From a virus: a stretch of 59,872 nucleotides of DNA. Positions 38,640 to 59,844 of the stretch are shown here, in pieces. A program made the translations under genes and the position numbers. The stretch lies in the IMG/VR virus record IMGVR_UViG_3300024231_000697, positions 1 to 59,872 of that record. One strand, given 5' to 3'. Under the pieces are notes generated by a model, which saw only the letters and a program-made list of their open reading frames with translations, was not told the DNA's origin and ran no database searches. Positions within the stretch are counted from its first letter, which is position 1. The number at the start of each line of letters is the position of its first letter.

Positions 38640-39526
38640 AACAATATTTACAAGCACTACAACATATTTTAGACAATGGTGAAGACGTAAGCGATCGAAC
38701 AGGAACCGGTACACGTAGTGTATTTGGCTACCAAATGCGTTTTAACCTATCTCAGGGGTTTCCAGCAGTAACTACAAAAAAACTGTTATGGAAAAGTGTA
38801 GTAGGAGAACTACTATGGTTCTTGGAAGGTAGCACAGACGAACGCAGACTTGCTGAGATTACATTTGGACGCTCACGTGAAGAACTAATTGGCAAGCAAA
38901 CAATCTGGACCGCCAATGCTGATAAGCAAGGCAAAGACTTGGGATATGTAAATGATAACACTACCAAAGCACTAGGGCCAGTTTACGGTCATCAGTGGCG
39001 TAACTTTAATGGTGAACTGTATAATAGCGCACCATATTTACAAGGCACTGATCAAATTAGTTGGTTAATAGAAGAAATTAAAAATAAACCAGATAGTCGA
39101 AGGTTAATACTTTCTGCATGGAACCCAAATCAAATAAATGAAATGGCATTACCTCCCTGTCATACAATAGCACAATTTAGAGTAATGAACGGTAAACTAA
39201 GTTGTCAGTTGTATCAGAGAAGTGCTGATATGTTTCTGGGTGTACCATTTAATATTGCTAGCTATAGTTTGTTTACTCATATGTTAGCTCAAATATGTGA
39301 TTTACAAGTAGGCGAATTTGTACACACAATTGGAGATGCACACATCTATAATAACCATATGGATCAAGTAAAGCAACAATTAGAACGTACTCCTAAAGAC
39401 AAAAAGCCATTTTTAGAAATGCCAAACTTTAGATCTCTGGAGGAGTTAATAAATACACATGTTACTGATTACACCTTGATTGGATATAATCCAATGGACA
39501 GTATCAAAGCACCAATGGCAGTTTAG
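38636..39526 (+). CDS. td: Thymidylate synthase (ThyA type)
   Basis: 296 residues, compared with 286 in T4 Td. Catalytic Cys175 is in PPCHTIAQF. Other family blocks: SDRTGTGTRSVFGYQMRF, the W/E-rich LLWFLEGSTDERRL, QLYQRSADMFLGVPFNIASY and HTIGDAHIYNNH. It makes dTMP from dUMP with methylene-tetrahydrofolate. No intron is present, unlike T4 td. Together with DHFR it supports a high rate of AT-rich DNA synthesis. Confidence 0.97.
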   Translation: MKQYLQALQHILDNGEDVSDRTGTGTRSVFGYQMRFNLSQGFPAVTTKKLLWKSVVGELLWFLEGSTDERRLAEITFGRSREELIGKQTIWTANADKQGKDLGYVNDNTTKALGPVYGHQWRNFNGELYNSAPYLQGTDQISWLIEEIKNKPDSRRLILSAWNPNQINEMALPPCHTIAQFRVMNGKLSCQLYQRSADMFLGVPFNIASYSLFTHMLAQICDLQVGEFVHTIGDAHIYNNHMDQVKQQLERTPKDKKPFLEMPNFRSLEELINTHVTDYTLIGYNPMDSIKAPMAV

Positions 39527-41613: not shown

Positions 41614-42195
41614 ATGGAGAACTGGCAACAGGCGGCAGAGCAACGAACTAACACATACAAGTGGACTGATGAAATTCCAAGCGAAGCTGATATAAATGAA
41701 ATATTAGACAATTTACATTTATATTCTCCAAGTAAACAACGCAAAGTAAGATATGAAATTTTAATATATCGTAATGACGATGAGCTTAGACGTAAACAAA
41801 TATATAGAGCCTCTGCTGCAGATTTAACAGATACTGCAAGACATAATCCACAAACACTAGCACCTTGGTTACTACTTTTTAAAAAACGTAACAGTGATGA
41901 AGATTTTAATGATGCTGACATCTTTATGGATTTAGGAATTGCAACAGGAGCTATTATATGGGCCGCCGCAGATAAAGGTATTGATAGTGGTTTGAATAAA
42001 TGTGTAAACTATCCTGATCTAGTAGAAGATGCAGTTGGCTTTATGCCAGAAATGATTATTGGACTAGGATATAAAGCACCTGGACAGAGTTACTATTGCA
42101 CACATTACGAAAAAGAAGTAAGCATACCAGACAGCAATTATGATCAAAAGCCTAACAAGGATGATTATATCAGTTATTGGAGCCACAATGAATAA
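41614..42195 (+). CDS. Nitroreductase-like flavoprotein
   Basis: 193 residues with the nitroreductase layout: an N-terminal helix, LHLYSPSKQRKVRYEI, a central hydrophobic APWLLLF strand, FMDLGIATGAIIWAAADKGI (the conserved G-x-A/S-x-x-x-x-A helix) and FMPEMIIGLGYKAPG at the end. It likely binds FMN and oxidises or reduces a small substrate. Its stop overlaps the split radical SAM gene by 8 bases, and a second nitroreductase-like gene at 44637 also sits beside a radical SAM gene. Confidence 0.72.
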   Translation: MENWQQAAEQRTNTYKWTDEIPSEADINEILDNLHLYSPSKQRKVRYEILIYRNDDELRRKQIYRASAADLTDTARHNPQTLAPWLLLFKKRNSDEDFNDADIFMDLGIATGAIIWAAADKGIDSGLNKCVNYPDLVEDAVGFMPEMIIGLGYKAPGQSYYCTHYEKEVSIPDSNYDQKPNKDDYISYWSHNE

Positions 42196-42928
42196 TTTTT
42201 GGGAAACAAAAAGCCAACAGATTGAAGTTTCGATCACTACTCATTGCCAAGCAAAATGTCCAATGTGTCCACGAACAGAAATGATAGATGATGGTCTTGA
42301 ATTTAAAGTATATCATTCATCCATTGAAAGCTACAAGAAAACTATACATGAGTGGCAAGAGGATCATAGCTCTCTACATAAAAAGGTTGTAATATGTGGC
42401 GACTATGGAGATCCTATGATGCATCCAGATATTGAAGAATATATCAAAGTTACACATGATGCTAATATAGATATATCTATACACACCAATGGCGGTTTAC
42501 GATCCACAGACTTTTATAAACGCATTGGTGAAAACTATAACTGCCTTATAGTATTTGGTATCGACGGCGTAACTGCTGAATCAAATAATTTATATAGAGT
42601 CGATGTTGACTTTAACAAAGCCATGGAAAATATGTTAACATACGCTAAGTATACCATGAATAATTGTCAATGGGACTATCTCATGTTTACATATAATATA
42701 GAAGAATGCAAAGCAGCAATGCAACTAGCGGAAGAACATGGTATTCGTTTTTTTCCTAACATAAACAGACGCAAATGGAAATATAAAATAACTTCAAAAG
42801 AGGATATGGAGACTGCAAAAAAATATATGGAGATGGCTAGAAATTATTCAGGCATATCTAAAATAGTTAACTATGCTGATCCTGATAACAGATATGTTGA
42901 ACTGAGGCGCAAAAATGATAAAATGTAA
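42188..42928 (+). CDS. Radical SAM core, 5' part of a split enzyme (rSAM 4a)
   Basis: 246 residues from the ATG at 42188. Core C20-x3-C24-x2-C27 (TTHCQAKCPMC) and a Gly motif in CGDYGDPMMHPD. Similar genes at 21716 and 58798 continue into a SPASM-like C-terminus; here the frame stops after YVELRRKNDKM and the continuation lies in the +1 frame (next entry). An A-run (AAAAA then AAAA) sits at the junction. Could be a frameshift, programmed or artefactual, or a two-polypeptide enzyme. Confidence 0.78.
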   Translation: MNNFWETKSQQIEVSITTHCQAKCPMCPRTEMIDDGLEFKVYHSSIESYKKTIHEWQEDHSSLHKKVVICGDYGDPMMHPDIEEYIKVTHDANIDISIHTNGGLRSTDFYKRIGENYNCLIVFGIDGVTAESNNLYRVDVDFNKAMENMLTYAKYTMNNCQWDYLMFTYNIEECKAAMQLAEEHGIRFFPNINRRKWKYKITSKEDMETAKKYMEMARNYSGISKIVNYADPDNRYVELRRKNDKM

Positions 42929-43184
42929 AACAAAAAATGTTATCATTGATACTGATAATAGACTATGGCCATGCTGTTGGGTTTTAACTAAATCAGATCT
43001 TTCATTCTATTTGGCTGATGTTGAAAAAAGAGAACCGTTTTGGAATAGTTTAAGCCATCATACTATAAATGAAATTTTAAATCATGAAGTATATACTGAT
43101 CATTTTAATACCAAACATTGGGAAGATGAAGATGCATGTGATCCAATTTGTAAAATTGAATGTACATTGAAAGGTAGCAAATAA
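42915..43184 (+). CDS. SPASM-like domain, 3' part of a split radical SAM enzyme (rSAM 4b)
   Basis: 89 residues beginning MIKCKTKNVIIDTDNRLWPC. The pattern I-x-C-x6-I-D...N-R-L-W-P-C-C then CDPICKIEC matches the C-terminal region of rSAM 2 and of the enzyme at 58798, aligned without a gap after I-x-C. It overlaps the core by 14 bases in the +1 frame, with its own ATG but no good ribosome site. It ends in a TAATG overlap with the next radical SAM gene. Confidence 0.75.
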   Translation: MIKCKTKNVIIDTDNRLWPCCWVLTKSDLSFYLADVEKREPFWNSLSHHTINEILNHEVYTDHFNTKHWEDEDACDPICKIECTLKGSK

Positions 43185-44448: not shown

Positions 44449-44658
44449 TTTGCTTATAAAGTATTCCCATTCAGTATAAGTTTTTTCAACTATCCACTTG
44501 TGTTTGGGTTCAACATTAGTGTAACGTTTTATGTAATAGTAATAAGATAGCCATACCACTTTTCCACTGTCTACTTTTTTTGGAACCCATGCATATTTTC
44601 TAGTTATTTCTGGTTCTTCACTGTGTCTCAAATTATCTAATCCAAAATTTCTACGCAA
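44437..44658 (-). CDS. Small basic protein of unknown function
   Basis: 73 residues from a TTG start (no ATG available), overlapping the end of the nitroreductase-like gene by 22 bases. Basic and Tyr/Trp-rich (KKVDSGKVVWLSYYYYIKRY). It terminates at the TTAG repeat. Coding is plausible from composition but not certain. Confidence 0.45.
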   Translation of the reverse strand: MRRNFGLDNLRHSEEPEITRKYAWVPKKVDSGKVVWLSYYYYIKRYTNVEPKHKWIVEKTYTEWEYFISKLTN

Positions 44659-45332
44659 ACTTGTTCTCTCTTTTTTACCATATAATCACAATCAGGATCA
44701 TCCTTATATTCTATTCTAGTTTTATCAGGATGTGGAACACCAATACCTACAAGCATAAAATTGGTGAACTCTAGGTTTAATAGTTTTTTAAGTGCATAGT
44801 TGTCAAAACATGTACAATATCCTGTACGATATCCAAGCATATTTGCAACTAAAACTAATTGCCCTGAACTAATACCTAAATGTCTATTTTGGTCTTGTTT
44901 AAATCCTGCTATAACCTGTTTTTGGTTACTTCCATCAGAGTTGTTAAATTGCCAAGCATTTTCTTCTACATCATGTTCTTGCATTTCTTGGTCTTCGAGA
45001 AAAGATTCAGACATTTGATCGAAGTCTTTACATTCATATACAAACACTAAGTTTGCTAATGTTTGTGAATTTGTTGCTACAGATTGTACTTTTGTTGTTT
45101 TGCTTCTAACTGTTGCACCTACTGTAAGATCGTGTATTTTGCTTATAATATCTGGGTTAGATACAACCGTTAAATTAAAATAGCTATGATTTTGTTTAGA
45201 TGGCGCTTCAGTTGCCGCATGTATCATGGGATCCAAATGCTCCTGTGGTATAGAAGCGGTTAAATCAAAATTACGATAGCAATGCTGACTGCCTGTTACC
45301 GCCTGTTCTAGTTGTTCTGTTATTTTATCCAT
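44637..45332 (-). CDS. Nitroreductase-like flavoprotein
   Basis: 231 residues. Nitroreductase pattern: CYRNFDLTASIPQEHLDPMI, ATEAPSKQNHSYF, a helix GISSGQLVLVANMLGYRTGY with the conserved Gly, and FMLVGIGVPHPDK at the end. Good SD GGAG. Overlaps the upstream radical SAM gene by 13 bases. Compare the gene at 41614, which is also next to a radical SAM gene. Flavin-dependent oxidation of a modified product is a possible role. Confidence 0.8.
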   Translation of the reverse strand: MDKITEQLEQAVTGSQHCYRNFDLTASIPQEHLDPMIHAATEAPSKQNHSYFNLTVVSNPDIISKIHDLTVGATVRSKTTKVQSVATNSQTLANLVFVYECKDFDQMSESFLEDQEMQEHDVEENAWQFNNSDGSNQKQVIAGFKQDQNRHLGISSGQLVLVANMLGYRTGYCTCFDNYALKKLLNLEFTNFMLVGIGVPHPDKTRIEYKDDPDCDYMVKKREQVCVEILD

Positions 45333-46716: not shown

Positions 46717-47284
46717 AGCCGTGTTCTGCTACTAATTCTAAATTCTTCTCGTGGTAGGCTTTAATACTAGATGTTAAATCTGCTAAACTAATATCAGACT
46801 CAAAGAAATCAATTAGTAATTGTAACGTAACTGGATTACGAAGTATGAATATATCATCATACTCTAATGATATATCTGTATGCTTGATATCTTCTTGCGC
46901 AATTTCTTTTGGATTTGCAACACCATGTATTAACGACATTATTCTATCTCCACGATAGTGATAATTAAAGTTGTTGTTTAATAAAGTTTTAAGGGCTCCT
47001 AGTAAAACTACAAAACTATTTGTCTTTGAGGAATTAACATTGATGCCAATAGACTGGTATTGCTTTAAGTATTCATAATCTTCATACCATTCCCATTCAT
47101 GCATTGTACATATTTTTTTACATCGTTCTATACTAACTTCTTTATCTCGATCGTAAATATAGTCGCGACCATCAACTTTTCCAAAGTATTCATTATTACG
47201 TTCTATCCAGTCATATGTAGGGTCTAACATAAATGAAAGGAATTGCCCACTTGCTCCACCTTGGTATACAAGTAACTTAGTCAT
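46712..47284 (-). CDS. Protein of unknown function, 190 aa
   Basis: N-terminus TKLLVYQGGASGQFLSFML has a beta-strand and Gly-rich loop like the PAPS-binding loop of sulfotransferase-like folds, but no other motif supports this. A later ILRNPVTLQLLIDFF segment recalls the second strand and helix of such enzymes. It overlaps rSAM 7 by 8 bases at the end of a long operon, so it probably acts in the same pathway. Confidence 0.5.
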   Translation of the reverse strand: MTKLLVYQGGASGQFLSFMLDPTYDWIERNNEYFGKVDGRDYIYDRDKEVSIERCKKICTMHEWEWYEDYEYLKQYQSIGINVNSSKTNSFVVLLGALKTLLNNNFNYHYRGDRIMSLIHGVANPKEIAQEDIKHTDISLEYDDIFILRNPVTLQLLIDFFESDISLADLTSSIKAYHEKNLELVAEHGL

Positions 47285-48503
47285 TTTTTATAAACTTTGA
47301 AAACTCTGGAGCAATCTCTAATAGATTGCCTTTTTGTAATTCGTCTGTTTTTATATTAAAGTCAACAAACTCTTTCCATCGCTTTTCATACCAATCTTCA
47401 GCCCACATATATTTAATTGTGTCTGCCACTTTTGGTATATGCAAATAAGGCTGTAAGCGTTCTTCTGCCAGTTGTTTTAATTCAGATGGAAGTGTTCTAA
47501 TATTCATACTTTCTGGATGATTAAGTATATTTAAATAAATTTGATCATCAGTAATACCTTTACTAGCAATCCAATCAAATAAATCTGACATAGCACACAT
47601 ATTTAAAACTTGTACTGTGCAATGAATTTGTATATTTACATTTGGTAATGCGTTTAGTTTATCAAATGTTTGTTCTACTTTACCCCAATTACTTGGATAA
47701 CGTATATATCTATCTCTCTCGCCGGTTGCATCAATACTACAATTTAATTGTACTCTCTTAAAGTGACTCCAATAGTCAATCATCTTTTGTGGAACATTTG
47801 TTAAGTTAGTATTATACTTTAGTTTGATGCCACTTGCTAAATCATTCTCAATGCAATAGTCAAATAATGCATACTGTGATGTTGCTAGTGTAGGCTCACC
47901 ACCTGTTAAATATATCTCTTCAATAGTATGAGCAATTTCAACAAACGTGGTTGCAGTTTGTTTACGATCTGGCCATTGTTGCATTACTTCCAAGTGATCA
48001 AATTCTTCTTGTGTTAATGGATCATTTGGTACTAGTTCTGCTGTATCAACAACTTTGTTCCAATCCTTAACCCACATACTACTGCTCCATGGATTGCACA
48101 TACGACATTTTAAGTTACATAAATTGCCCAATCGTAAATCTACGTATCGTACATCTACAGGAATTTCTTCTGCAATTTTAACACTATCTTTAAGCCATTT
48201 TTCATTATACCCAATACGAGGGCTACGTATACCTGCATCTTCTTCACGGAAACATCTTTGACATGTTTCTGGACGTTCGCCATTTATAAACTGTTTGCGA
48301 ATCTCTTTGTAATGATTGCTATTCCAAACATCGTCTATATCATCTTTGTAAATGCGATAACTTTTTGTTGGATCGTCATCACGCATAATTTTATTATTTT
48401 TTGGATTACTATTACAACATACTCTATAGCCACCGCCTGGATTGACTGCTACATGCATAAAAGGTAATACACAAAAGGTATCACTTGGTAAATCTTTACT
48501 CAT
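47277..48503 (-). CDS. Radical SAM enzyme with N-terminal twitch-like domain (rSAM 7)
   Basis: 408 residues from the ATG at 48503. Auxiliary cysteines C11, C29-C30 and C81-x2-C84; core C129-x3-C133-x2-C136 (RLGNLCNLKCRMC). It matches rSAM 1 almost motif for motif (SDTFCVLP, CCNS, IRKQF-x-x-G-E, VD-x-RLGNLCNLKCRMCNPW), so the two are clear paralogues on opposite strands. Overlaps rSAM 8 by 8 bases. Confidence 0.9.
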   Translation of the reverse strand: MSKDLPSDTFCVLPFMHVAVNPGGGYRVCCNSNPKNNKIMRDDDPTKSYRIYKDDIDDVWNSNHYKEIRKQFINGERPETCQRCFREEDAGIRSPRIGYNEKWLKDSVKIAEEIPVDVRYVDLRLGNLCNLKCRMCNPWSSSMWVKDWNKVVDTAELVPNDPLTQEEFDHLEVMQQWPDRKQTATTFVEIAHTIEEIYLTGGEPTLATSQYALFDYCIENDLASGIKLKYNTNLTNVPQKMIDYWSHFKRVQLNCSIDATGERDRYIRYPSNWGKVEQTFDKLNALPNVNIQIHCTVQVLNMCAMSDLFDWIASKGITDDQIYLNILNHPESMNIRTLPSELKQLAEERLQPYLHIPKVADTIKYMWAEDWYEKRWKEFVDFNIKTDELQKGNLLEIAPEFSKFIKND

Positions 48504-49551
48504 CAAATAATTCCGGGCATTCTTGCTTCATATCTGTTCCATATATTTTATCTAATGCTGACATATAGTCAACTAATTTTTTAAAGTTTTCTTCTTTATA
48601 TACAACGTCAGTTGATATATTTAACTTTTCTCTTACACTAGGATGTAAACTACTGTAGTTCATAAACTCAGGTTCTTTTAGTTGCCAATCTGTAGTGTTA
48701 TGTATATCAAGTCCATGATTGTTTGCCCATTCCTCTGTTTCATAAAACACCGCAGCATTTAGAGTTTGTGGCAAATACGTTATGCATATTTCTATGTCTA
48801 AATCTCTTTTCTTAATATTATTTATAAAGTCCTCAATATTGCTCCATTTACTGTATGGACGTATATATTCATATCTACTCCCAATGCCATCAACACTTAT
48901 ATCAATTTGGACTTCTCTATATTTACTAAAAATTTCAAACCATTCATCATCTAAAGTAACTTGCCCGTTTGATATAAATTTTAATTCAGTTGAAGAACTT
49001 GCTCCTGATTCTATTGCGTACTTACATACCTCTTTTGTATGTTTTACTAAAAAAGGCTCCCCTCCAGTAAACTTTAAATACTTAACTTTGTCAAGATTAT
49101 TTTTAACTTCACTTAAAAATTTATTATGCCAGCTAAATGGACTAGTTAATGGCTTTATAGGATCCCAATGTTTTTCAAGATTTGCATCTTTGTTAGCTTT
49201 TACTACTTTATCCCATGTACTACTAGATTTTGGAGTACACATTCTACAACTTAAATTACATGTGTTTGTAATTTTAAGATCAAATATAGTTTTTTCATCT
49301 CCAGGAACATGATATTTTGCTCTAGAGGTTCGTGGACTTGATCCATTATGAAGTTCATCTAGTCTACAGTACTCGCACTCTTTTGCCCATCCTGTTTCCA
49401 TTGTTTCTTTTAGTTCTGGAAAGCTATTTTTCCAATTAAACTCATCATAATCTTTATTACTATTGTCGCTCGGACGAATATAACAGCAAGGTCTTACAGT
49501 TCCTCCTGTTCCTATTGTAATCCCATTATCTAGGTAGGCACACTTAGGCAT
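48496..49551 (-). CDS. Radical SAM enzyme with N-terminal twitch-like domain (rSAM 8)
   Basis: 351 residues. Auxiliary cysteines C4, C22-C23 and C59-x2-C62; core C98-x3-C102-x2-C105 (TNTCNLSCRMC); KFTGGEPFLV. Closest relative is rSAM 9 just upstream (same MPxC start and CC spacing), suggesting tandem duplication. SD TAGGAG and a late-promoter octamer lie in the 27-base gap in front of it. Confidence 0.9.
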   Translation of the reverse strand: MPKCAYLDNGITIGTGGTVRPCCYIRPSDNSNKDYDEFNWKNSFPELKETMETGWAKECEYCRLDELHNGSSPRTSRAKYHVPGDEKTIFDLKITNTCNLSCRMCTPKSSSTWDKVVKANKDANLEKHWDPIKPLTSPFSWHNKFLSEVKNNLDKVKYLKFTGGEPFLVKHTKEVCKYAIESGASSSTELKFISNGQVTLDDEWFEIFSKYREVQIDISVDGIGSRYEYIRPYSKWSNIEDFINNIKKRDLDIEICITYLPQTLNAAVFYETEEWANNHGLDIHNTTDWQLKEPEFMNYSSLHPSVREKLNISTDVVYKEENFKKLVDYMSALDKIYGTDMKQECPELFDE

Positions 49552-49575
49552 TTATAAATCTCCTATTCTTAAGAC

Positions 49576-49583
49576 TATTTATG
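49576..49583 (-). promoter_or_regulatory. T4-like late promoter (CATAAATA, minus strand)
   Basis: Octamer 24 bases before the rSAM 8 ATG, overlapping the 3' end of rSAM 9; starts a late sub-operon for rSAM 8, rSAM 7 and the 46712 gene. Confidence 0.6.
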
Positions 49584-50559
49584 TATCTAGAAACTTCTCG
49601 TAATTGGTATTATGTATACTATCAATGGTTTTTAGATGTTTTATTAATTGTGCGGCAAGTACTGGATTTTCAAGCACATTAGGACTCATGAATTCTGGAT
49701 CATAACATGTACCACATGACGACCAAAATATACCATGTTCAGCACACCAGTCAACAACTTCATGCACGTGATCTTTATTAAGTATCTGGTGTAAACTGTT
49801 AACCCTAACCTCCATATTTGTACCTATGGTTGCAGCATGTAATGCTAGTACATTTGTTTCAACTTCATTCCATTTAGCATTCTGTCTGATGTATTCATAT
49901 CGTTCGCCAATTGCATCCAAACTTATATTAAACGATACTTCACTAAAATGCTTTAATGTACTTAACTTATCTTCTAAATTTATGGTTCCGTTAGTGGTAA
50001 AATGTAGTTGTACATCTTTAGCAATATCGTTATCCACCATATACTGTACCATTTTCCAAACTTGTGGTATCATAAATGGTTCGCCACCAGTAAACTTAAC
50101 CACTTCTGCATATGCTAAATTTGGAAATACTATATCAAAATCACGATGCCATTTTTCTTTTGGTGCTTTGCCATATGCATCCATAAAGTCTTTGGGTAAA
50201 TTATTTTCTTTGGTAATTTTTTGCCAAGTACTACTGCTCCAACTGTCACACATTTTACAAGCAAGGTTGCAGGTATTGTTAATCTTTAAATCCCACCAAG
50301 CAATACCGTCACCGCAATCAGCTAGTTTTTTATTATAGTGGTCGCTCCAAGGTATACCGTCTTCTTCTTGTTTGAGTTTACATTCTATACAACCAGGAAG
50401 CCAGTCACCACTTGCACTTAGTTGTCCTAGTCTTTTGTGTTCTGATTTCCAATCATCATTAAATCTTAAAGGTTTTTCGTCACGATAATGACAACATGGG
50501 CGCACTATTCCATTAGGACCAATAGTTAGTCCATGATCAAACATTACGCAATATGGCAT
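49579..50559 (-). CDS. Radical SAM enzyme with N-terminal twitch-like domain (rSAM 9)
   Basis: 326 residues, the shortest. Auxiliary cysteines C4, C22-C23 and C57-x2-C60; core C97-x3-C101-x2-C104 (NNTCNLACKMC); KFTGGEPFMI. Tandem paralogue of rSAM 8. It overlaps the 2OG oxygenase gene by one base (stop/start), so it is translationally coupled to an Fe(II) enzyme. Confidence 0.9.
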   Translation of the reverse strand: MPYCVMFDHGLTIGPNGIVRPCCHYRDEKPLRFNDDWKSEHKRLGQLSASGDWLPGCIECKLKQEEDGIPWSDHYNKKLADCGDGIAWWDLKINNTCNLACKMCDSWSSSTWQKITKENNLPKDFMDAYGKAPKEKWHRDFDIVFPNLAYAEVVKFTGGEPFMIPQVWKMVQYMVDNDIAKDVQLHFTTNGTINLEDKLSTLKHFSEVSFNISLDAIGERYEYIRQNAKWNEVETNVLALHAATIGTNMEVRVNSLHQILNKDHVHEVVDWCAEHGIFWSSCGTCYDPEFMSPNVLENPVLAAQLIKHLKTIDSIHNTNYEKFLDT

Positions 50560-51320
50560 TAACAGTGCAATCCCATACTTTTGCCGTATCCGTATCTTGC
50601 TTTCTCTTTTAATAAGTCACTTTGGTCCCCATCAAATATCATGTGTATACGTGGTTCATCGCTGCGATTCCAAACTGCATGCTCGTATCCTGTGTTAATT
50701 TTAAATGCACTACCTGGTGTGTAAGGCAATTCGCCCCAACCACCCATCACTAGTTTACATCCGTCAGGATTGTTAACTGCTACATTAGTTGCACCAACTC
50801 CTGTAATTCTTGGCCTATCAGTATGTGGTGCTAGCCAACCGCCTGGCAATACTGCCATAAAGCGCACACGGGTAAATACGTCATATAGTTTACTATCCAT
50901 CATCCATTCTTTAGTACGTGGTGCAAATTTAGCTATGTCAGTCCAGTCACTTAAATCACGTTCTGCACTATCTGGTAAATTATAATCTTCTGGTACATTA
51001 GTATGTACACTACTCATACCATACATACATAAACTTAGCCAACCACTACTGTTTGGTCGATGCAATGTATAACAACTGGTGTACAATAAATGATTTGCTT
51101 CCTCAAAGATTTCTTCATGTGGCATGTCATCTATGCCTAAATCAATCCAAGGTAGTTTTGTTTTGTCTAATATTTCGTCTAGCTCGTCCTGTGCATCAGC
51201 CCATAAGTAGGCACTATCAACACCCTCAAACATAGGAGTAATATCTTCATTTGCTTCAAAAAACTCTTGAGTTTCTCTATTGGGTTCTTCCCAAGTAAGT
51301 TGTTTTCCTTCGTACCACAT
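50559..51320 (-). CDS. 2OG-Fe(II) oxygenase, Asp/Asn beta-hydroxylase-like
   Basis: 253 residues. The double-stranded beta-helix metal triad is visible as H166-x-D168 (VLPGGWLAPHTDRP) and H214 (GYEHAVWNRSDEPRIHMIF), with Arg224 as likely 2-oxoglutarate partner. The segment NVAVNNPDGCKLVM is typical of phage aspartyl/asparaginyl beta-hydroxylase relatives. It would hydroxylate a peptide, protein or small molecule. Located between a radical SAM gene and the paired unknown proteins. Confidence 0.82.
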   Translation of the reverse strand: MWYEGKQLTWEEPNRETQEFFEANEDITPMFEGVDSAYLWADAQDELDEILDKTKLPWIDLGIDDMPHEEIFEEANHLLYTSCYTLHRPNSSGWLSLCMYGMSSVHTNVPEDYNLPDSAERDLSDWTDIAKFAPRTKEWMMDSKLYDVFTRVRFMAVLPGGWLAPHTDRPRITGVGATNVAVNNPDGCKLVMGGWGELPYTPGSAFKINTGYEHAVWNRSDEPRIHMIFDGDQSDLLKEKARYGYGKSMGLHC

Positions 51321-52745
51321 TTATAATATTCCTGGTAATGATCTGATATTGTGATAACTGTGATAAAAACCATGCGGAGTATCGCCAGTTAAATATACAT
51401 CTTTATTGTTTATTAATAATTCGTTTACTAAGTTTAAAAAAGCAGCCTGTGCTTGAAACGCATGAGTATTTATATAGTTAATTTCATAAGACCATATATT
51501 ACTAATTTGTAAAAATACACGATTGTCTTTCCCTACTTCTTCTACTAGCGTATTCCAATTTTTAACAATGTCAATATTTAAAAATACATGTTCTAGATTT
51601 CTAATATGATTCCAGTGTTCTAACCATTGCTCTTGGCTATCATAGCTGTCTATAAACTCGCCAACTAAGTCTACATCGTAAATAATACAATCTTGTCTGT
51701 GGAAGCCATTGTCCATAATTGTATGTATGTTATCTTCAACAAACTTCTCAAAGTTGGTACCATCCCAGTTATTTAAAACAAACTTAGTCCATTCAGTTGC
51801 ATACCAACTAAAGTCACTCCAGATAACTTTCTTTAAATTATCTCCAGCATTTGTCATATGTCTAAATTGATGCAATCCACTACACGGCGCAATTATAACA
51901 TCAACTGGCAAATCTGTTTCTTCTGGTACATCTTCTGTGTTTGTTATATACATGACATGACTATCCATAACTTTGAATCCATACATTTCACGTTTGTCTT
52001 CAGGAACCTCGTCATAATAAAACTGTGTAAGAAATTCTTTATCCTGTTTATTCCAATCTACATCCAACATCCACATTTTGGTTTGCTCAATATCATCTTC
52101 TGGATAACAACAATATTTTTCATTTCTAATATCGTAAGATAAATTTCTTACAACACAATTATTAGCAAGTGATATTGCAATTAATGCGTCAAATTCATCT
52201 CCTGCAAAATCCAATCCACCTAATGTTTTTCCTGTAGGAGTTAAGTACATTGGAGTATATTCGTCATGAAAGTTTTCTTCACTTGGAATAAATCCAGGAT
52301 AAAAATCATTCCACTCGAATTCTGGATAGTCAATCTCTGCCCATTTTTTTAAATTTAATACCACGCATTGTTTGTGCCATTCTGGTGCTTGTGCGCTAAT
52401 AAGTCTGTCAATAATATGTCCCGCACAAAACCAATCGTCCCATGTAGATACTTCTTTGAGTAACTCATCATCAAATTCAGCAGTCATTGGCCAAGTACCA
52501 TCAAACCATAATACTGCCATTTCAAAATTCATATCTGCTAATTGTCGTAGTGTAGAATATCCATCATCTGTCCAACTAGTAGTGTTTACTACTGCGTGTT
52601 GTGTAGAGTTTGTTAGATTAATTGACATGCACTTTTTTAATTTACTAGCATACTCATGTTCATTTTTAATCTCATCTACTAATATTTCACCAAATATACA
52701 ATGTGCTATTTGATTTTTAGATCCAAGTTTGATGTATGTATTCAT
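51321..52745 (-). CDS. Unknown protein, paralogue of the 52742 gene
   Basis: 474 residues. Shared landmarks with its neighbour: an N-terminal VLWFDGTWP segment, a central G-x-I-x-D-R...N-x-x-x-W, a later VIWSDFSWYATEWTKFVL...WDG, and near the end IWSYEINY. The second half has a faint Rossmann-like strand pattern. No known family recognised. It overlaps the upstream copy by 4 bases and abuts the oxygenase gene, so it is likely a core part of the pathway (enzyme, scaffold or substrate carrier). Confidence 0.55.
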   Translation of the reverse strand: MNTYIKLGSKNQIAHCIFGEILVDEIKNEHEYASKLKKCMSINLTNSTQHAVVNTTSWTDDGYSTLRQLADMNFEMAVLWFDGTWPMTAEFDDELLKEVSTWDDWFCAGHIIDRLISAQAPEWHKQCVVLNLKKWAEIDYPEFEWNDFYPGFIPSEENFHDEYTPMYLTPTGKTLGGLDFAGDEFDALIAISLANNCVVRNLSYDIRNEKYCCYPEDDIEQTKMWMLDVDWNKQDKEFLTQFYYDEVPEDKREMYGFKVMDSHVMYITNTEDVPEETDLPVDVIIAPCSGLHQFRHMTNAGDNLKKVIWSDFSWYATEWTKFVLNNWDGTNFEKFVEDNIHTIMDNGFHRQDCIIYDVDLVGEFIDSYDSQEQWLEHWNHIRNLEHVFLNIDIVKNWNTLVEEVGKDNRVFLQISNIWSYEINYINTHAFQAQAAFLNLVNELLINNKDVYLTGDTPHGFYHSYHNIRSLPGIL

Positions 52746-54196
52746 TCTTCTAATCCTATAACTAGGTTATTAGTTGCACTGCCAATTACTCTGGCAGGAC
52801 ACATTAAATCAGCATCATTAACATCAGTACCAGCATACCAACTTTCATTATTAGTCTGTTGTATACGCTCTATCATATTCATAAAGCTACGCTCTAACAC
52901 AAACGGCTTGGCTAGTATTTTAGGAATAATATAACTGTAAATGTTACTAGCCCAGAAGAATGTTTTAACATCATGTAGTTTTACAAATAACTCATCTTGT
53001 CCATTGATTAAGTCTGCCTGTACTACTGTGTGATCACAAAAGCTAATTTGTGTCCAGAAGTCTTGCCAACTAGATTGCCCTCCAAATTGGTCTATTACAT
53101 TTGGCCATCTTTCAACAGTTAAGTCTAACAAATCTTTGTTAGCATCTGGATTACGTTCACACCATGCTTTTACCCAACCTGGATAGTCTTCACCATCCCA
53201 CATCTTAAGTGTTTCTCTTTTAAATTTTACACTATCTTCATCAAAGTCATACCAGACAAATCTAGTCATACCTGGGTTTACTCCATACTTGTATGCATAG
53301 TATAATAATTTAAATCCTGCTGTTGCTCCTACGTACTGATCAAACACTGTATCTTCAAGTAAACTACTTGTTGTAGGCGCACTGGGTTCAGTATTAATAA
53401 AGTAAATTGGACTACCAGGCAAGTTAATATTTTCCAATAATTTTTTACCTTGATAACTAACCTCTGTTGGATCATGAAACTCGCCACTTAGTCCTCGTTC
53501 AAGTTCATCTGTACCAAGCCAAGGTTTAATTAATGTTACACTATCCATTAAGTCATCACTAATGCCCCACACTCTCATATTACGTAGTAAACTGTATTGT
53601 ATCCAACTTGTAGCGAACGTATTCTGATGTATGTAATTTACTGCTTCTGCACGTTTCCACTTTCCGTTACTAGGGCTTAAACTATATGCACTATCTTCCC
53701 ATCTTTTAGTAACATCTGTTTCCATCCAATCAGGATGTCTTGCTGGTTCCCACAGTGGGCCTACTTGATGTTCCATCCAAGATGCTATGTTAATAATAAC
53801 AAAACTTCTACCAAGATAAGGATACATGTTTGGACGATCACTTATAATTTGACCGGATACCATCCAGTTTGGATCTTCAGCATTATATTTGTCAATCTCA
53901 TTCAATAGTTTGATATTAAAATCTTCACTTGCTGGCCAAGCACCATCAAACCAAACTACTGCATACTTATAGTCCATAGAATTCATTGCAATAATCCAAC
54001 TTGTATCAAACATGTTGTATAAATTTACAATACCGCCTCTAACATGATTATTGCATTCTACATTTTGAATTGTTTGCAATTTTTGTTTTAGTAGTGCGTG
54101 TTGGTTTAGTGCTGGATCTCTATCTAAAAAAGCATGAACTATAGGCCAGCTTTGTTCAGTATGATAGTAACTCCAGTTTTGTTGTCCTTGGATCAT
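52742..54196 (-). CDS. Unknown protein, paralogue of the 51321 gene
   Basis: 484 residues with the same landmarks in order: VVWFDGAWP, VSGQIISDRP, RFVWYDFDEDSVKFKRETLK...WDG, and NIYSYIIPK. Identity to the sister gene is low but the layout is the same, so duplication is ancient. It overlaps rSAM 10 and the sister by 4 bases each (ATGA type). Function unknown; a glycosyl- or methyltransferase-like fold is conceivable. Confidence 0.55.
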   Translation of the reverse strand: MIQGQQNWSYYHTEQSWPIVHAFLDRDPALNQHALLKQKLQTIQNVECNNHVRGGIVNLYNMFDTSWIIAMNSMDYKYAVVWFDGAWPASEDFNIKLLNEIDKYNAEDPNWMVSGQIISDRPNMYPYLGRSFVIINIASWMEHQVGPLWEPARHPDWMETDVTKRWEDSAYSLSPSNGKWKRAEAVNYIHQNTFATSWIQYSLLRNMRVWGISDDLMDSVTLIKPWLGTDELERGLSGEFHDPTEVSYQGKKLLENINLPGSPIYFINTEPSAPTTSSLLEDTVFDQYVGATAGFKLLYYAYKYGVNPGMTRFVWYDFDEDSVKFKRETLKMWDGEDYPGWVKAWCERNPDANKDLLDLTVERWPNVIDQFGGQSSWQDFWTQISFCDHTVVQADLINGQDELFVKLHDVKTFFWASNIYSYIIPKILAKPFVLERSFMNMIERIQQTNNESWYAGTDVNDADLMCPARVIGSATNNLVIGLEE

Positions 54197-55416
54197 TTAT
54201 TATTCTCTGCTACTATGTCCATTCCTTCTAAACTCATATTTAAATAAGTTTTTACCATGGACTTTAAGGTTGCTTCATTAGGATATCTATTTTCAATATC
54301 ACGAGTGTATTTACGCATACGTGCATATAGCATGTATACTGATGTATTGTTTTCCATGTAAGTTGCAAAGCGATCCATTTCAGGGTGACGCTTCTCTGCT
54401 GATCTTAAATGTGAAATAATACTATTTTTATAGTTGCCCTGCCATACTGCTGGACTTAAATAGTTTGGTGTTTGTAATATGTTTGCTGTAATAAATTTTA
54501 AGTCTACTGGAGACTCTTTCCAGAAGTCATAAAACTCAGGCATCTGGTATACATTATGAGCTTGTACTGTAATTCCTACTGCTAAGTCAATACCATCTAT
54601 TAATGATAATGCTAACATGTTCTCGTAAACTGTATCCCAATCGCCGTCTTGTCTAATGTAGTTATAAACTTCTCCAACGCCATCCATACTTACTTTGATA
54701 TTAACGTGTTTAAACTCACTCCATATTTTAACCAGATCGTACTTCTTAAACTTGATATAACTTAGGTTACTAGCATAGCGCAAACGTATACGCTTCTTGA
54801 TTTCTGTAGGTATACTGTCTAGTAAATCATAATGCTCTTTATTAATGATTGGCTCGCCACCAGTAAACTGTAGGGTATGTACATGATCCCAAAGCTCAGG
54901 CCACTCTGACAAGCTCTCAAATAGCGTTGTAGGGCGTAGTAAGCGTGTCTCGTATCCATCTTTTGTATACTTCTTTATAATATCTAAGTCCGCCACACGT
55001 TTGTATGAACTGTGTGTACTACACATAATGCACTTTAGGTTACAGAAGTTACTAACTTTTAGTTCAATCCAAATAGGAGGATTATCGACTGAGTAGTCAT
55101 CATTCACTTGAATAATATCAGCAAACTCTAACCAGTTGTCTTTTTCCCACTGTAACCTATTACTTACAATCCCGCTGTCCTCATTGTGCCAGCACACTTC
55201 ACAGCGTTCTGGTCTTTCTCCGTTTGCTAGGGATTTTCGTAATTCTTTATAATTTTCGTTGTTCCAAGTTTCAATAGCTGATTCGTTTGGATTGTTAAGA
55301 GGTATTTCTTGTGCCTCACAACACGGCACTAGATCGCCGCCTGCTGTACCATATATATGTACATAGGGTAGCATACAAAATGTATCGCTCTCTTTTAATT
55401 TATTTTTATCAATCAT
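54193..55416 (-). CDS. Radical SAM enzyme with N-terminal twitch-like domain (rSAM 10)
   Basis: 407 residues. Auxiliary cysteines C14, C32-C33 and C72-x2-C75; core C125-x3-C129-x2-C132 (SNFCNLKCIMC); QFTGGEPIIN. Four-base overlap with the 52742 gene and a 1-base gap to rSAM 11. Substrate unknown. Confidence 0.9.
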   Translation of the reverse strand: MIDKNKLKESDTFCMLPYVHIYGTAGGDLVPCCEAQEIPLNNPNESAIETWNNENYKELRKSLANGERPERCEVCWHNEDSGIVSNRLQWEKDNWLEFADIIQVNDDYSVDNPPIWIELKVSNFCNLKCIMCSTHSSYKRVADLDIIKKYTKDGYETRLLRPTTLFESLSEWPELWDHVHTLQFTGGEPIINKEHYDLLDSIPTEIKKRIRLRYASNLSYIKFKKYDLVKIWSEFKHVNIKVSMDGVGEVYNYIRQDGDWDTVYENMLALSLIDGIDLAVGITVQAHNVYQMPEFYDFWKESPVDLKFITANILQTPNYLSPAVWQGNYKNSIISHLRSAEKRHPEMDRFATYMENNTSVYMLYARMRKYTRDIENRYPNEATLKSMVKTYLNMSLEGMDIVAENNK

Positions 55417-55417
55417 G

Positions 55418-56602
55418 TCAATCCCAATTAATAGACGGTACGTCTAGCTCAACTAAGTCTTTAAACTTTCGCAATTCAGGCCAGCTAGTATCCAGTTGGT
55501 CTCTTATACGTAACACTTGTCTTATATCTTTCATATAATCTGTGCTATTGTCCTCTACTCCATTTGGTTTGCAAATACCATATAATAAGTCTCTTAGGGG
55601 TCGCATTTTACCTGGTTTAATTTGGTCACTAAATTGCATACGTATTGTAAACTCTAGTTTTTTCTTAAACCAATCTGGCCAATGTTGAATACTTAAATAA
55701 TGAGGCTCATAAACTGTTTGCAATATAACGTCAATATCTTTTACTATTTTTGCCCAATATACAAACTCAAACATGTAAGCTGCATTTACTACATTAACTG
55801 TAGTTGCAGTCTTTACAGTTACTTTGCCAGGATATTCTGACCTCATTGCAATCCATTTGTCAAGAGTAGCTTCAACTTGTTCCCATTTGCTAGGTGCTCT
55901 TAACGCATCATTAACACCACCATATGCATCAATACTTGCACTTATGGTAATGTGCTTAAACTGCAACAGTGCATTGTAGTCTGTTTTCTTAGGCCACCAT
56001 GTGCAATTGGTGAAAATTTCTATCTGTATGTTTGGTGCTAGTCCAGCGTCTGCCAATCTTACAACAAAGTTTAAGAATTGGCGATGTAAGAATGGCTCTC
56101 CACCTGTTACCTTAATATAACGTAAATCACGTAGCATGTCAACATTAATATCGTCCAAGTCTAATTCTTGTTTACTTTTTAACTTTTTGATAGTTTCTGC
56201 AGTTTCCATTTTTAATTTAATACTATCGTCGTCCCATGTATGACTAAAATCAGGTCCGCAACTCATACACTTTAAGTTACATAGTCTACCCACTGTAATT
56301 TCCAAATACTCTAGTTTGACGTCATCTGTAAAGTCACTAAAGAACTCATCAGCCTCAGTACGCATACTGCTACCTTTGGTTTCTTCATCTGCTTTACATT
56401 TAAAACAACCTGGATGCCATTCGTTACGCATCATAGTTTCACGTATATCTGCAAAACTTGCATCAAATGTATCCACATGTTGTCTATCTCCTTCCCCAAG
56501 GAACCTGTTGTGAAATCTACAACAAGGTGTGGCATCCACGCCATGCATTAGCATAGCACTTTTAAATGGATATGCACATGCGTTTTTGGGTAATTTACTC
56601 AA
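55418..56602 (-). CDS. Radical SAM enzyme with N-terminal twitch-like domain (rSAM 11)
   Basis: 394 residues if translation starts at TTG 56602, which overlaps the aminotransferase stop; an in-frame ATG at 56638 would add 12 residues. Auxiliary cysteines C9, C27-C28 and C66-x2-C69; core C108-x3-C112-x2-C115 (GRLCNLKCMSC); KVTGGEPFLH. It follows the PLP enzyme with an 8-base overlap, so the two are coupled. Confidence 0.88.
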   Translation of the reverse strand: MSKLPKNACAYPFKSAMLMHGVDATPCCRFHNRFLGEGDRQHVDTFDASFADIRETMMRNEWHPGCFKCKADEETKGSSMRTEADEFFSDFTDDVKLEYLEITVGRLCNLKCMSCGPDFSHTWDDDSIKLKMETAETIKKLKSKQELDLDDINVDMLRDLRYIKVTGGEPFLHRQFLNFVVRLADAGLAPNIQIEIFTNCTWWPKKTDYNALLQFKHITISASIDAYGGVNDALRAPSKWEQVEATLDKWIAMRSEYPGKVTVKTATTVNVVNAAYMFEFVYWAKIVKDIDVILQTVYEPHYLSIQHWPDWFKKKLEFTIRMQFSDQIKPGKMRPLRDLLYGICKPNGVEDNSTDYMKDIRQVLRIRDQLDTSWPELRKFKDLVELDVPSINWD

Positions 56603-57533
56603 GGAATTTGCCTTTGTTTTTATAACGCTTAACAGCATTACGGATATTAACACGATGGTATTTTTTATCTCTATTAAACATGCTCCATTCTTCTGTCATA
56701 GGAGCGGTAGCAATATGTACTGTGTTACTTGGTTCAAGTCCATAATGTTCACACACGGCATCATGTGCTTCTTTATATTTCTTTGGTACTGTGTCTGGAC
56801 TAAAGTGTTCAAACAAGAAGTTTGCAATCATAACATTTAAATGTATACCATGGTTCCATTCAGTTTGTACACTTAAACTACCTTCGTCAATACGACTAAA
56901 CACGATACCTGCACGCCAGTTACCACAGCTAAGTCCTTTGGTTGTACTAAATGCAGCCATTGTGATACATGGTTGATCTAAGTCAACTTCAATTCCATGA
57001 CATGTTCCAAACCAAGCAAGATCAACAAATACTGGTATTTCTAATTCGTTACACTTGCCAATAATTCTATCCCACTCATCATGCTTTCTACCAGTACCAC
57101 TAAATGGTAAACTAATAATTAATGCATCACCCTTTGCTAATGGAGTTTCTTCAACATAACGTTTGTGATGCCACTCGCCTTCAAGTAATACATCACGGTT
57201 ATAAGGATATTCTCCGCGGTACATACGCAAATTATATCCATTAGCCATACAATAATAATGCCACCAATCAAGTCCTTGTGTTGTTCCCAAACTTACAAAT
57301 TTATGTGGAAAACTTTCTAAGCCAGTAATACTATTCATTTTACTACTAGTAATCCATTTTGGATATACGTCTAAAAACTTAGTAGCCGCATCACTAATAC
57401 CTTCAATACTCATTTCTGGACCAAAGAATTCGCTTTCCAATTTATCATAAAATGGTTGGTTCCATATACTATTGCCGTGATTTGCAAAGTCTTCGTTTTT
57501 AATTACTTGATTCTTGGGTGGTTTTTTAGCCAT
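56595..57533 (-). CDS. PLP-dependent aminotransferase-like enzyme (fold type I)
   Basis: 312 residues, shorter than most of the family (roughly 360-430). Asp171 in VFVDLAWFGTCHG and the PLP lysine K199 in FSTTKGLSCGNWRAG fit fold-type-I aminotransferases; a normal R-x-G follows. The small-domain C-terminus is truncated relative to aspartate aminotransferase. It may transfer an amino group to a sugar or keto intermediate made by the radical SAM enzymes around it. Confidence 0.78.
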   Translation of the reverse strand: MAKKPPKNQVIKNEDFANHGNSIWNQPFYDKLESEFFGPEMSIEGISDAATKFLDVYPKWITSSKMNSITGLESFPHKFVSLGTTQGLDWWHYYCMANGYNLRMYRGEYPYNRDVLLEGEWHHKRYVEETPLAKGDALIISLPFSGTGRKHDEWDRIIGKCNELEIPVFVDLAWFGTCHGIEVDLDQPCITMAAFSTTKGLSCGNWRAGIVFSRIDEGSLSVQTEWNHGIHLNVMIANFLFEHFSPDTVPKKYKEAHDAVCEHYGLEPSNTVHIATAPMTEEWSMFNRDKKYHRVNIRNAVKRYKNKGKFLE

Positions 57534-57535
57534 TA

Positions 57536-58801
57536 TTATTTGTCCTCTTTATATGGGGCAAGCTCTGGTACTGCCGCAAATGTATCTGTCTTACGAAGCC
57601 TATCTAAGTCTCGTGTATATTGTAGGAAATGTTTCCAACGCTTTTTTTGTTCTACTGGATCTACTTCTCTTTTTAATCCATTTCTAATATCAGCAACACC
57701 TGTTTGGTATTCAAACATATCTACGTGATGGCTATCTAATGGCCAAATAGTTGATGTTGGAATATTTTCCATTTTCTTTAATGCTTGTTGTTTTAACTCT
57801 AGTGGAAGGTTTGCAATATTTAAATATGCTGGACTTACAACAACATTTGTCATTGCAATACTAGCACGTTTTCTATGGTGCTTGGCAAACCAGTCCCATA
57901 TTTTATCTAGTTCAAAAACATTAGTAGACATTACTGTCACTGCAAAAACAACCTCAACATTATCCATTTCATAAAACTGGTCAATGTTCTTGTTAAGGTC
58001 TTCCCATGTGTATTTACCACCGCGAATAATACTGTAAAGTTCATCTACTGCTTCAATACTAATCAATAGTTCTACGTGTTTAAATTCTGCAAATATATCT
58101 TTAAACTTTTGTTCAACTACGGTAGCATTTGTACTAATATCTAAACTAACATTGGCAGCTAGTCCTGCATCTACAAACCATTTAAGTACACTATAGCAAT
58201 GTTCGTCATACAATGGTTCACCGCCACGCAATGCAACTACTTCTAAATTTCTAAAATACTCTGGGTTGGCAAATAAATTATCCATAAAGGTTAAATCATC
58301 TACGCCATTATAGCCTGTTTGTGTTTCTGTCCAATATTCAGGATTTTCCTTATTAAGTGCTTTGCCGTCTTTTTTCCAACTTGTACTAACAAACGGATTG
58401 CAATGTATACATGCTAGGTTACATTTGTTGCTTAGTGTAAAATCCAAGTAACGAATATCTGGTTCCATGTCTGCACTATGCCATTCACTTTCAACACGCA
58501 ATTCATAATCCATTTTGTCCCAAAAGAACATACGTCTGCTACGTCCACTTTTTTCTTTTTTAGCACAATTCATACATGCTGGTGGAATAATTCTATTACG
58601 ATGATCTTCTCTTAGTTTTTTAAATGCATCACCATGCCAAATTTCAGCAAGGGTTTGATCATTAATATTTCCAAGCCTATCCTTATAAATGATGTCTGGT
58701 ACAACAGTGCCTCCCCATTTAATAGTGAGTGCATGCCAAGGTGCCATACAAGTTGGATACTTTTTATCATCTAAAAATCTATTTCTATATTCTTTTTTCA
58801 T
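57536..58801 (-). CDS. Radical SAM enzyme with altered N-terminal cluster domain (rSAM 12)
   Basis: 421 residues. Core C127-x3-C131-x2-C134 (SNKCNLACIHC) and a LRGGEPLYD motif. The auxiliary domain keeps C18 and C76-x2-C79 but has VVPDII where relatives have a CC pair, so the auxiliary cluster may be incomplete or use another ligand. Four-base overlap with rSAM 13 makes a third twitch-first plus SPASM-last pair. Confidence 0.88.
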   Translation of the reverse strand: MKKEYRNRFLDDKKYPTCMAPWHALTIKWGGTVVPDIIYKDRLGNINDQTLAEIWHGDAFKKLREDHRNRIIPPACMNCAKKEKSGRSRRMFFWDKMDYELRVESEWHSADMEPDIRYLDFTLSNKCNLACIHCNPFVSTSWKKDGKALNKENPEYWTETQTGYNGVDDLTFMDNLFANPEYFRNLEVVALRGGEPLYDEHCYSVLKWFVDAGLAANVSLDISTNATVVEQKFKDIFAEFKHVELLISIEAVDELYSIIRGGKYTWEDLNKNIDQFYEMDNVEVVFAVTVMSTNVFELDKIWDWFAKHHRKRASIAMTNVVVSPAYLNIANLPLELKQQALKKMENIPTSTIWPLDSHHVDMFEYQTGVADIRNGLKREVDPVEQKKRWKHFLQYTRDLDRLRKTDTFAAVPELAPYKEDK

Positions 58802-59844
58802 TTACAAATTCCACATATATCTCTACACTGTTTCCAGCTCGCATTTTTTACTGCTCTCTTTAGGTCAGTAGTAAACCATTCATTATTTAATACTTCAGAT
58901 AAACTATATTTTTTCAAATCATTTTCTTCTCTTGCTTCAAAAAAGCTATCATCAACCATTAAATTTAAGTCATGGTTTTCAATTGGTACACCATATAAAC
59001 TAAGATGACAACAAGGCCAAACTGTTCCCCAAGGATCAATTTGTATTTTTCTATCACTATACCAAGGACACTTATGATCCTTTTGATTGTCCATAATTTC
59101 GTCAGTGGTTTCCAAGAAAACATTTCTATCACGTAAGTCACTTATTGGTCTGTCTTCTCTATCGTTCCAGTTTACTTGATACTCGTCAATATCATAATGT
59201 CCACTAATTTCATAATTTCCATCTACTGTAACAATATTCATATGGTCACCATGACTATGTCTTAATGCAAATTGCACACACCCATTCTCATATGCCAGAT
59301 TTTCAACTTCTTTTATCTGATGCTTGTTGTGTTCAAACAATGTCATAGTATAACATGCTCTGCCGCCGCCTGCAATAAAAGCTTTACTATTTCTAATAAT
59401 TTTTTCCCATTCAGTCTTGCGCCTGTATAGAGAGTGTGTATCGCTCATTCCATCAACTGCAAACTTAACTGCATGATTGGTAAACTTTCTGCATATCTTG
59501 CCTAATGAATTCCAAAACTTTTCAGTTCTCATTGCTCCATTAGTGTGTATATACAAAGCAGTTTCAGGATGATAAGCACAATATATTTCTAGCATTTCCA
59601 CCATTTTTGGGTGCATCATTGGATCACCCCAATTACCATTTAAGCTAAGTTCAACAATATACCATCCTCTGGTATCCTCACTACATAATCGTGTCCATAC
59701 CTCCATGTCAAAATGTTCGAGAACCAGTTCTTGTTTAACCTCGTCACCATCTACATTTCTCACACAGGCACCACATCTAGCATTACAATAACTAGTTAAG
59801 TCAACTTGCAAATTATTAACAACTCTAGCCCAATCCATATTCAT
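58798..59844 (-). CDS. Radical SAM enzyme with C-terminal SPASM-like domain (rSAM 13)
   Basis: 348 residues. Core C20-x3-C24-x2-C27 (TSYCNARCGAC) at the N-terminus, NGNWGDPMMHP, and a C-terminal cluster region (KCPWYSDRK; VWPCCHL; CRDICGICK). Same type as rSAM 2 and the split rSAM 4, with which it shares the IHTNGAMRTEKFW-type turn. SD GAGGA precedes the ATG at 59844 (a second ATG is two codons later). It is the first gene of the minus-strand block in this window. Confidence 0.88.
   Translation of the reverse strand: MNMDWARVVNNLQVDLTSYCNARCGACVRNVDGDEVKQELVLEHFDMEVWTRLCSEDTRGWYIVELSLNGNWGDPMMHPKMVEMLEIYCAYHPETALYIHTNGAMRTEKFWNSLGKICRKFTNHAVKFAVDGMSDTHSLYRRKTEWEKIIRNSKAFIAGGGRACYTMTLFEHNKHQIKEVENLAYENGCVQFALRHSHGDHMNIVTVDGNYEISGHYDIDEYQVNWNDREDRPISDLRDRNVFLETTDEIMDNQKDHKCPWYSDRKIQIDPWGTVWPCCHLSLYGVPIENHDLNLMVDDSFFEAREENDLKKYSLSEVLNNEWFTTDLKRAVKNASWKQCRDICGICK

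What the first reader, a model, noticed from the sequence alone, without database searches (positions are those of the whole stretch)
51321..54196. Unknown 480-residue paralogue pair inside the radical SAM operon
Two adjacent, 4-base-overlapping genes share landmarks (WFDGxWP; D-F/W-x...WDG; x-W/IYSY) but match no family I know. They sit between rSAM 10 and the 2OG oxygenase, so they are likely central to the pathway as enzyme, scaffold or acceptor protein.
Basis: partly seen in the sequence, partly recalled or inferred. Interest (0 to 1): 0.8.

Follow-up and report, generated by a model that had tools for sequence, protein, structure and literature searches.

The report
Hydroxylase-linked two-domain transferase-like pair
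Two overlapping virus genes encode a previously unnamed protein family that looks like a sugar-transferase fold joined to a methyl-transferase fold; relatives in predatory bacteria are fused to or sit beside a hydroxylase, which suggests an enzyme team that adds a hydroxyl group and then decorates the product.

Summary
Genes B (52742-54196) and A (51321-52745), both minus strand, overlap by 4 bases, are true paralogues (21% identity, E 2e-22) and match no Pfam, PHROG, NCBIfam or PDB sequence. Structure prediction (pLDDT 84 and 89) with Foldseek reads both as an N-terminal GT-A-like domain plus a C-terminal class-I methyltransferase-like domain. Nothing supports a RiPP precursor or acceptor role.

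Relatives occur on about 21 IMG/VR contigs: 12 with the B-A pair (window included), 9 with a single A-type copy. The family profile also found cellular relatives, in 13 of 369 Bdellovibrionota genomes. There the constant partner is not radical SAM but an AspH-type 2OG hydroxylase, adjacent or fused (in either order) in 11 of 12 genomes tested; 13 of their 15 AspH genes are at this locus. One Bdellovibrionia chromosome carries counterparts of much of the viral pathway.

B has lost the conserved N-domain motifs (3-46 bits against 73-121 for A), and part of that domain in one clade, but keeps its C-domain.

Best reading: a hydroxylate-then-decorate module. Catalysis by either domain is inferred: the GT domain lacks DXD, the other GxGxG. 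Substrate unknown.

The parts
52742..54196 (-). Gene B, 484 aa: GT-A-like N-half (about res 1-250), methyltransferase-like C-half (about res 255-484); N-half degenerate
51321..52745 (-). Gene A, 474 aa: same architecture; N-half motifs intact (GHI, HxQ, HDxYTP, R207/K210), C-half intact
50559..51320 (-). AspH-type Fe(II)/2OG hydroxylase, 253 aa (PF05118), triad H166-x-D168...H214 invariant in 13 aligned homologues; constant partner of the family
54193..55416 (-). N_Twi radical SAM protein overlapping the start of gene B by 4 bases; conserved directly upstream of the pair
55418..56653 (-). N_Twi radical SAM protein
56595..57533 (-). Short PLP-enzyme-like protein (Aminotran_1_2 weak in the window, E 3e-4 in an orthologue); 44% identical cellular counterpart in L171
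57536..58801 (-). N_Twi radical SAM protein
58798..59844 (-). Radical SAM protein with C-terminal SPASM domain
47277..50559 (-). Three further radical SAM genes (49579-50559, 48496-49551, 47277-48506) downstream of the hydroxylase

Best explanation
A and B are paralogous two-domain proteins of one unnamed family: a GT-A-like (nucleotide-sugar transferase fold) N-terminal domain fused to a class-I, SAM-methyltransferase-like C-terminal domain. They work with the AspH-type Fe(II)/2OG hydroxylase encoded directly downstream. Most likely the hydroxylase installs a hydroxyl group on the substrate and the two-domain protein elaborates that product (glycosyl transfer by A's N-domain, methyl transfer or another SAM-dependent step by the C-domains). 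B is a specialised copy whose N-domain has lost the conserved residues and probably serves A structurally while its C-domain stays active. Shown: paralogy, two-domain architecture as predicted, hydroxylase linkage and fusion, motif loss in B. Inferred: order of steps, sugar and methyl chemistry, A-B complex, nature of the substrate (cell-surface glycan, lipid, peptide or small molecule).
For: Two AlphaFold models, pLDDT 84.1 and 89.2, pTM 0.70 and 0.83 (both use the same alignment). Foldseek hits fall into two classes for each model: GT-A (majastridin 2qgi 8.8e-4, ColGalT1, PBCV-1 GT, GnT-I 4.2e-3, CHSY3, B3GalT5) and class-I MTases (NNMT 3rod 9.9e-4, PNMT 1hnn, AviRa, INMT 2a14); full-length matches only to uncharacterised phage proteins, A0A6J7WH01 E 7e-24 TM 0.71/0.75. 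The C-domain exists alone (L060:1459-2487), so the two halves are separable modules. Hydroxylase link: 13 of 15 AspH genes of 12 family-bearing genomes lie at the family locus, 11 of 12 genomes; 7 of 8 genomes without the family lack AspH. Pfam confirms AspH fused N-terminally in L169, L177, L175, L176, L180 and C-terminally in L179; the tree puts these in two different places, so two fusions. Half-by-half scoring against cellular-only profiles: N-half A 73-121, single copies 105-120, B 3-46 bits; C-half 78-135 bits for all. Several of the viruses, and other phyla's loci, carry sugar genes nearby: UDP-glucose dehydrogenase, phosphomannomutase, carbamoyltransferase, GT4.
Against: The GT-A domain has no DXD: one acidic residue in viruses, none consistently in cellular relatives. 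The MTase-like domain has no GxGxG motif, only one conserved Gly. Foldseek scores are modest (E about 1e-3 to 1e-2, per-target TM 0.3-0.45), and no hit passes 1e-3 for model A. Profile-profile comparison with viral GT-like and MTase-like neighbours gave no support (shallow profiles). Homologues in Acidobacteriota and Alphaproteobacteria are not next to AspH.
Confidence: 0.55

Rival explanations
1. Only the C-terminal domain is catalytic (SAM-dependent methyl or aminocarboxypropyl transfer onto the hydroxylated substrate); the GT-A-like half is a binding or dimerisation domain throughout the family, not a sugar transferase.
For: No DXD; N-domain is degenerate in B, partly deleted in L028/L043-type B, weak in Acidobacteriota/Alphaproteobacteria members; C-domain is the constant part and occurs alone (L060) or behind a weak 2OG-oxygenase match (L171, E 1e-3, below cut-off).
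Against: A-type, single-copy and most cellular N-domains keep a specific polar set (GHI, HxQ, HDxYTP, R207, K210), which is hard to explain without ligand binding or catalysis; some GT-A enzymes need no DXD (general knowledge).
Confidence: 0.3
2. The pair are direct auxiliary partners (scaffold, carrier or product-handling enzymes) of the N_Twi radical SAM enzymes; the hydroxylase linkage is secondary.
For: All 12 pair-bearing viral contigs and several Bdellovibrionota loci (L070/L170, L168, L171, L174, L179, L181) put the family beside radical SAM genes.
Against: Family plus hydroxylase without radical SAM in the fetched stretch in L172, L175, L176, L178; fusions are to the hydroxylase, never seen to radical SAM.
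Confidence: 0.1
3. The pair are acceptor or precursor proteins (RiPP-like) modified by the radical SAM enzymes.
For: Position inside a radical SAM and 2OG operon only.
Against: 480-residue proteins with confident two-domain enzyme-like folds, invariant polar motifs shared by viruses and bacteria, no leader/core pattern.
Confidence: 0.03

Closest known systems
Uncharacterised uncultured Caudovirales phage proteins A0A6J7WH01, A0A6J7WK42, A0A6J5KYS8 (BFVD)
   Same: Full-length match to the whole predicted structure of B, TM 0.63-0.75, E 5e-20 to 7e-24
   Different: Only about 14% sequence identity; unannotated; context not examined
LH3/PLOD lysyl hydroxylases and mimivirus L230/R699 collagen enzymes
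   Same: 2OG hydroxylase and GT-A glycosyltransferase working in one pathway or one chain; weak Foldseek hits to LH3 6fxk and R699 9e92 (PMC9546862)
   Different: Hydroxylase there is not PF05118; GT there has the DXXD metal motif; no methyltransferase domain. An analogy of logic, not membership
GT-A glycosyltransferases (majastridin, GT25/ColGalT, GnT-I, B3GNT2)
   Same: Predicted fold of the N-half
   Different: No DXD, no Pfam match, modest scores
Class-I SAM methyltransferases of the NNMT/PNMT/INMT type and AviRa
   Same: Predicted fold of the C-half; invariant Asp where these enzymes have the acidic residue after strand 2
   Different: No GxGxG motif I, no Pfam match, SAM binding untested
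N_Twi radical SAM islands of marine myoviruses (pelagimyophage variable region, TARA virus with 12 radical SAM genes)
   Same: Same kind of gene neighbourhood reported before (PMC7029224, PMC5332604)
   Different: In the passages of those papers I read, neither this family nor its hydroxylase partner is described

Membership tests
GT-A glycosyltransferase (N-half) | GT-A fold | tested here: inconclusive
   Foldseek hits in both models are dominated by GT-A for this half, but E about 1e-3 to 1e-2 and low TM
GT-A glycosyltransferase (N-half) | DXD metal-binding motif | tested here: not met
   Position is W-x-[DE]-G in viruses; acid not kept in cellular members, only Gly
GT-A glycosyltransferase (N-half) | Match to a Pfam glycosyltransferase model | tested here: not met
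GT-A glycosyltransferase (N-half) | Nucleotide-sugar binding and transfer | not testable with these tools
   needs protein
Class-I SAM methyltransferase (C-half) | Rossmann-like MTase fold | tested here: inconclusive
   NNMT, PNMT, AviRa, INMT, DOT1L among hits of both models, modest scores
Class-I SAM methyltransferase (C-half) | Glycine-rich motif I | tested here: not met
   Single conserved Gly (G290 of A, 37 of 39)
Class-I SAM methyltransferase (C-half) | Acidic residue after strand 2 | tested here: met
   D311 of A conserved 39 of 39
Class-I SAM methyltransferase (C-half) | SAM binding | not testable with these tools
   needs protein
AspH-type 2OG hydroxylase (partner, 50559-51320) | PF05118 match and HxD...H iron triad | tested here: met
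   E 3e-10; H166, D168, H214 invariant in 13 sequences
LH3/PLOD-type bifunctional hydroxylase-glycosyltransferase | 2OG hydroxylase fused to a GT with DXXD | tested here: not met
   Fusion present, but with PF05118 and without DXD/DXXD
RiPP precursor/acceptor | Short protein with variable core | tested here: not met
   474-484 aa, confident folds, invariant motifs

The most novel reading that the evidence does not exclude
A hydroxylate-glycosylate-methylate module, shared by marine T4-superfamily viruses and Bdellovibrionota, in which two paralogues divide the work: A keeps both domains, B keeps only an active C-domain and turns its transferase domain into a structural subunit, on one substrate together with the AspH-type hydroxylase.
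Probability: 0.3. Interest if true: 0.75.

Novelty: new variant of a known kind. Interest (0 to 1): 0.6.

Why it matters
It names the function class of a conserved, unannotated part of the large radical SAM islands of marine viruses, and ties it to a specific partner (an AspH-type hydroxylase) by fusions in bacteria. That turns an open 'unknown operon' into a testable three-protein module, and a Bdellovibrionota chromosome carrying counterparts of the amidinotransferase, PLP-like, radical SAM, hydroxylase and two-domain genes offers a cellular system in which to look for the product.

Tried and rejected
Pfam, PHROGs, NCBIfam and PDB sequence searches of the pair: nothing. INPHARED phages by tblastn with B, A and diverged members: nothing. 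Genome-collection scan with conserved peptides: nothing; the cellular relatives appeared only through the radical SAM neighbour and profile searches. GT25 family in the viral records: nothing, but the control genomes did not ring either, so uninformative. Profile-profile comparison of the halves with viral GT-like and MTase-like neighbours: no support. nsP3 zinc-binding hit on L060 C-domain (E 7e-4, below cut-off): taken as chance. RiPP-precursor reading: rejected. Bacteroidota (395 genomes): no match.

Full report
Observation. They are paralogues (E 2e-22; 67.9 bits against at most 6.4 in 1000 shuffles), and the landmarks are real. No sequence library recognises them.

Viral relatives. Profile-guided scans of IMG/VR found relatives on 20 further contigs (21 with the window; some are near-duplicates). 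Eleven of these and the window carry the B-A pair in the same order, with an N_Twi radical SAM gene upstream and an AspH-type hydroxylase downstream, in wider operons of radical SAM genes, a PLP-like gene and, in the other contigs, an amidinotransferase whose best PDB sequence matches are HsvA, StrB1 and SxtG. Nine carry one A-type copy in another setting: TctA transporter, UDP-glucose dehydrogenase, carbamoyltransferase, GT-like genes; in two of the loci examined the gene directly upstream has an HxD...H...R pattern like a 2OG dioxygenase, although Pfam does not recognise it and its similarity to AspH is weak. No isolate phage in INPHARED has the family. The window virus is of the T4 superfamily: its DNA polymerase is nearest Agrobacterium phage Atu_ph07 (47% identity).

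Fold. AlphaFold models of B (pLDDT 84.1, pTM 0.70) and A (89.2, 0.83), built from the same 24-sequence alignment, give two domains. Foldseek hits for both fall into GT-A glycosyltransferases and class-I methyltransferases, with modest scores; full-length matches exist only to uncharacterised uncultured phage proteins. A free-standing C-domain next to a carbamoyltransferase gene (L060) shows the C-half is a module of its own. I could not confirm the fold by sequence.

Cellular relatives and the constant partner. A scan with the radical SAM neighbour led to Bdellovibrionia loci with the family beside radical SAM genes. The family profile then found it in 13 of 369 Bdellovibrionota genomes, 2 of 396 Acidobacteriota, 1 of 385 Alphaproteobacteria and 0 of 395 Bacteroidota. 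In Bdellovibrionota the recurring neighbour is an AspH-type hydroxylase: fused N-terminally in L169, L177, L175, L176 and L180, C-terminally in L179 (Pfam PF05118), adjacent in L168, L171, L172, L173, L174 and L178. In 12 family-bearing genomes 13 of 15 AspH hits are at this locus and 11 of 12 genomes show the link; 7 of 8 genomes without the family have no AspH hit. The fused proteins fall in two places of the tree, so fusion happened at least twice. On one chromosome (L171) the family gene sits with two AspH genes, an amidinotransferase (47% identical to the viral one), a PLP-like protein (44%) and radical SAM genes.

Division of labour. Scored against profiles made only from cellular members, A and single-copy viral proteins match well in both halves (N 73-121 and 105-120 bits), whereas B matches in the C-half (106-135 bits) but barely in the N-half (3-46 bits). 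B has lost H110, the HxQ and HDxYTP motifs and R207/K210 (numbering of A), and in the L028 and L043 lineages part of the N-domain is missing. B forms one clade and A plus the single copies another. The simplest reading is an old duplication after which B's N-domain lost its function.

Interpretation. The link to a hydroxylase, the two transferase-like folds and the sugar-metabolism setting suggest that the hydroxylase makes a hydroxyl group that the two-domain proteins elaborate, in the way of collagen hydroxylysine glycosylation (LH3, mimivirus L230/R699; PMC9546862), which is an analogy only. Which domain is catalytic is open: the GT-A-like domain has no DXD and the C-domain no GxGxG. The substrate is unknown; PF05118 includes enzymes acting on proteins, lipids and free amino acids (general knowledge). 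Radical SAM islands in marine myoviruses have been reported (PMC5332604, PMC7029224), in the latter within a host-recognition region; I did not find this family described in the passages of those papers that I read.

Noticed in passing
L060:3718-4809 and 5192-5896 (virus of L006/L007): CsgG curli-export homologue (PF03783, 4e-51) with repeat proteins carrying signal peptides; a CsgG/CsgF curli operon is reported in pelagimyophages (PMC7029224).
   Followed up: partly
L015, L025, L031, L021 (virus contigs with the single-copy family gene): Viral TctA tricarboxylate transporter (E 2e-87 in L031) and a TctC-like periplasmic protein next to the family gene.
   Followed up: partly
L171 (Bdellovibrionia, MAG JAUICP01): Chromosomal cluster with counterparts of the viral amidinotransferase, PLP-like, AspH (two copies), family and radical SAM genes; direction of transfer untested.
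   Followed up: partly
L168:11448-14078: 876-aa protein containing an N_Twi radical SAM domain; the extra half was not identified.
   Followed up: no
window 42140-43184: Radical SAM gene followed by a separate small SPASM-like gene (89 aa): a split radical SAM/SPASM pair.
   Followed up: no
window 41614-42195 and 44637-45332: Two nitroreductase-family genes flanking the radical SAM island.
   Followed up: no
window 16655-18376, 37427-38137, 38636-39526: UDP-glucose dehydrogenase, phosphomannomutase and thymidylate synthase homologues in the same virus.
   Followed up: no
L025:16408-18558: GmrSD/DUF262-like restriction-type protein a few genes from the family gene.
   Followed up: no
L186 (Acidobacteriota): Family gene next to a sulfotransferase-like gene and a CHAT-domain protein; an AspH homologue and a carbamoyltransferase fragment lie 4-6 genes away.
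   Followed up: partly
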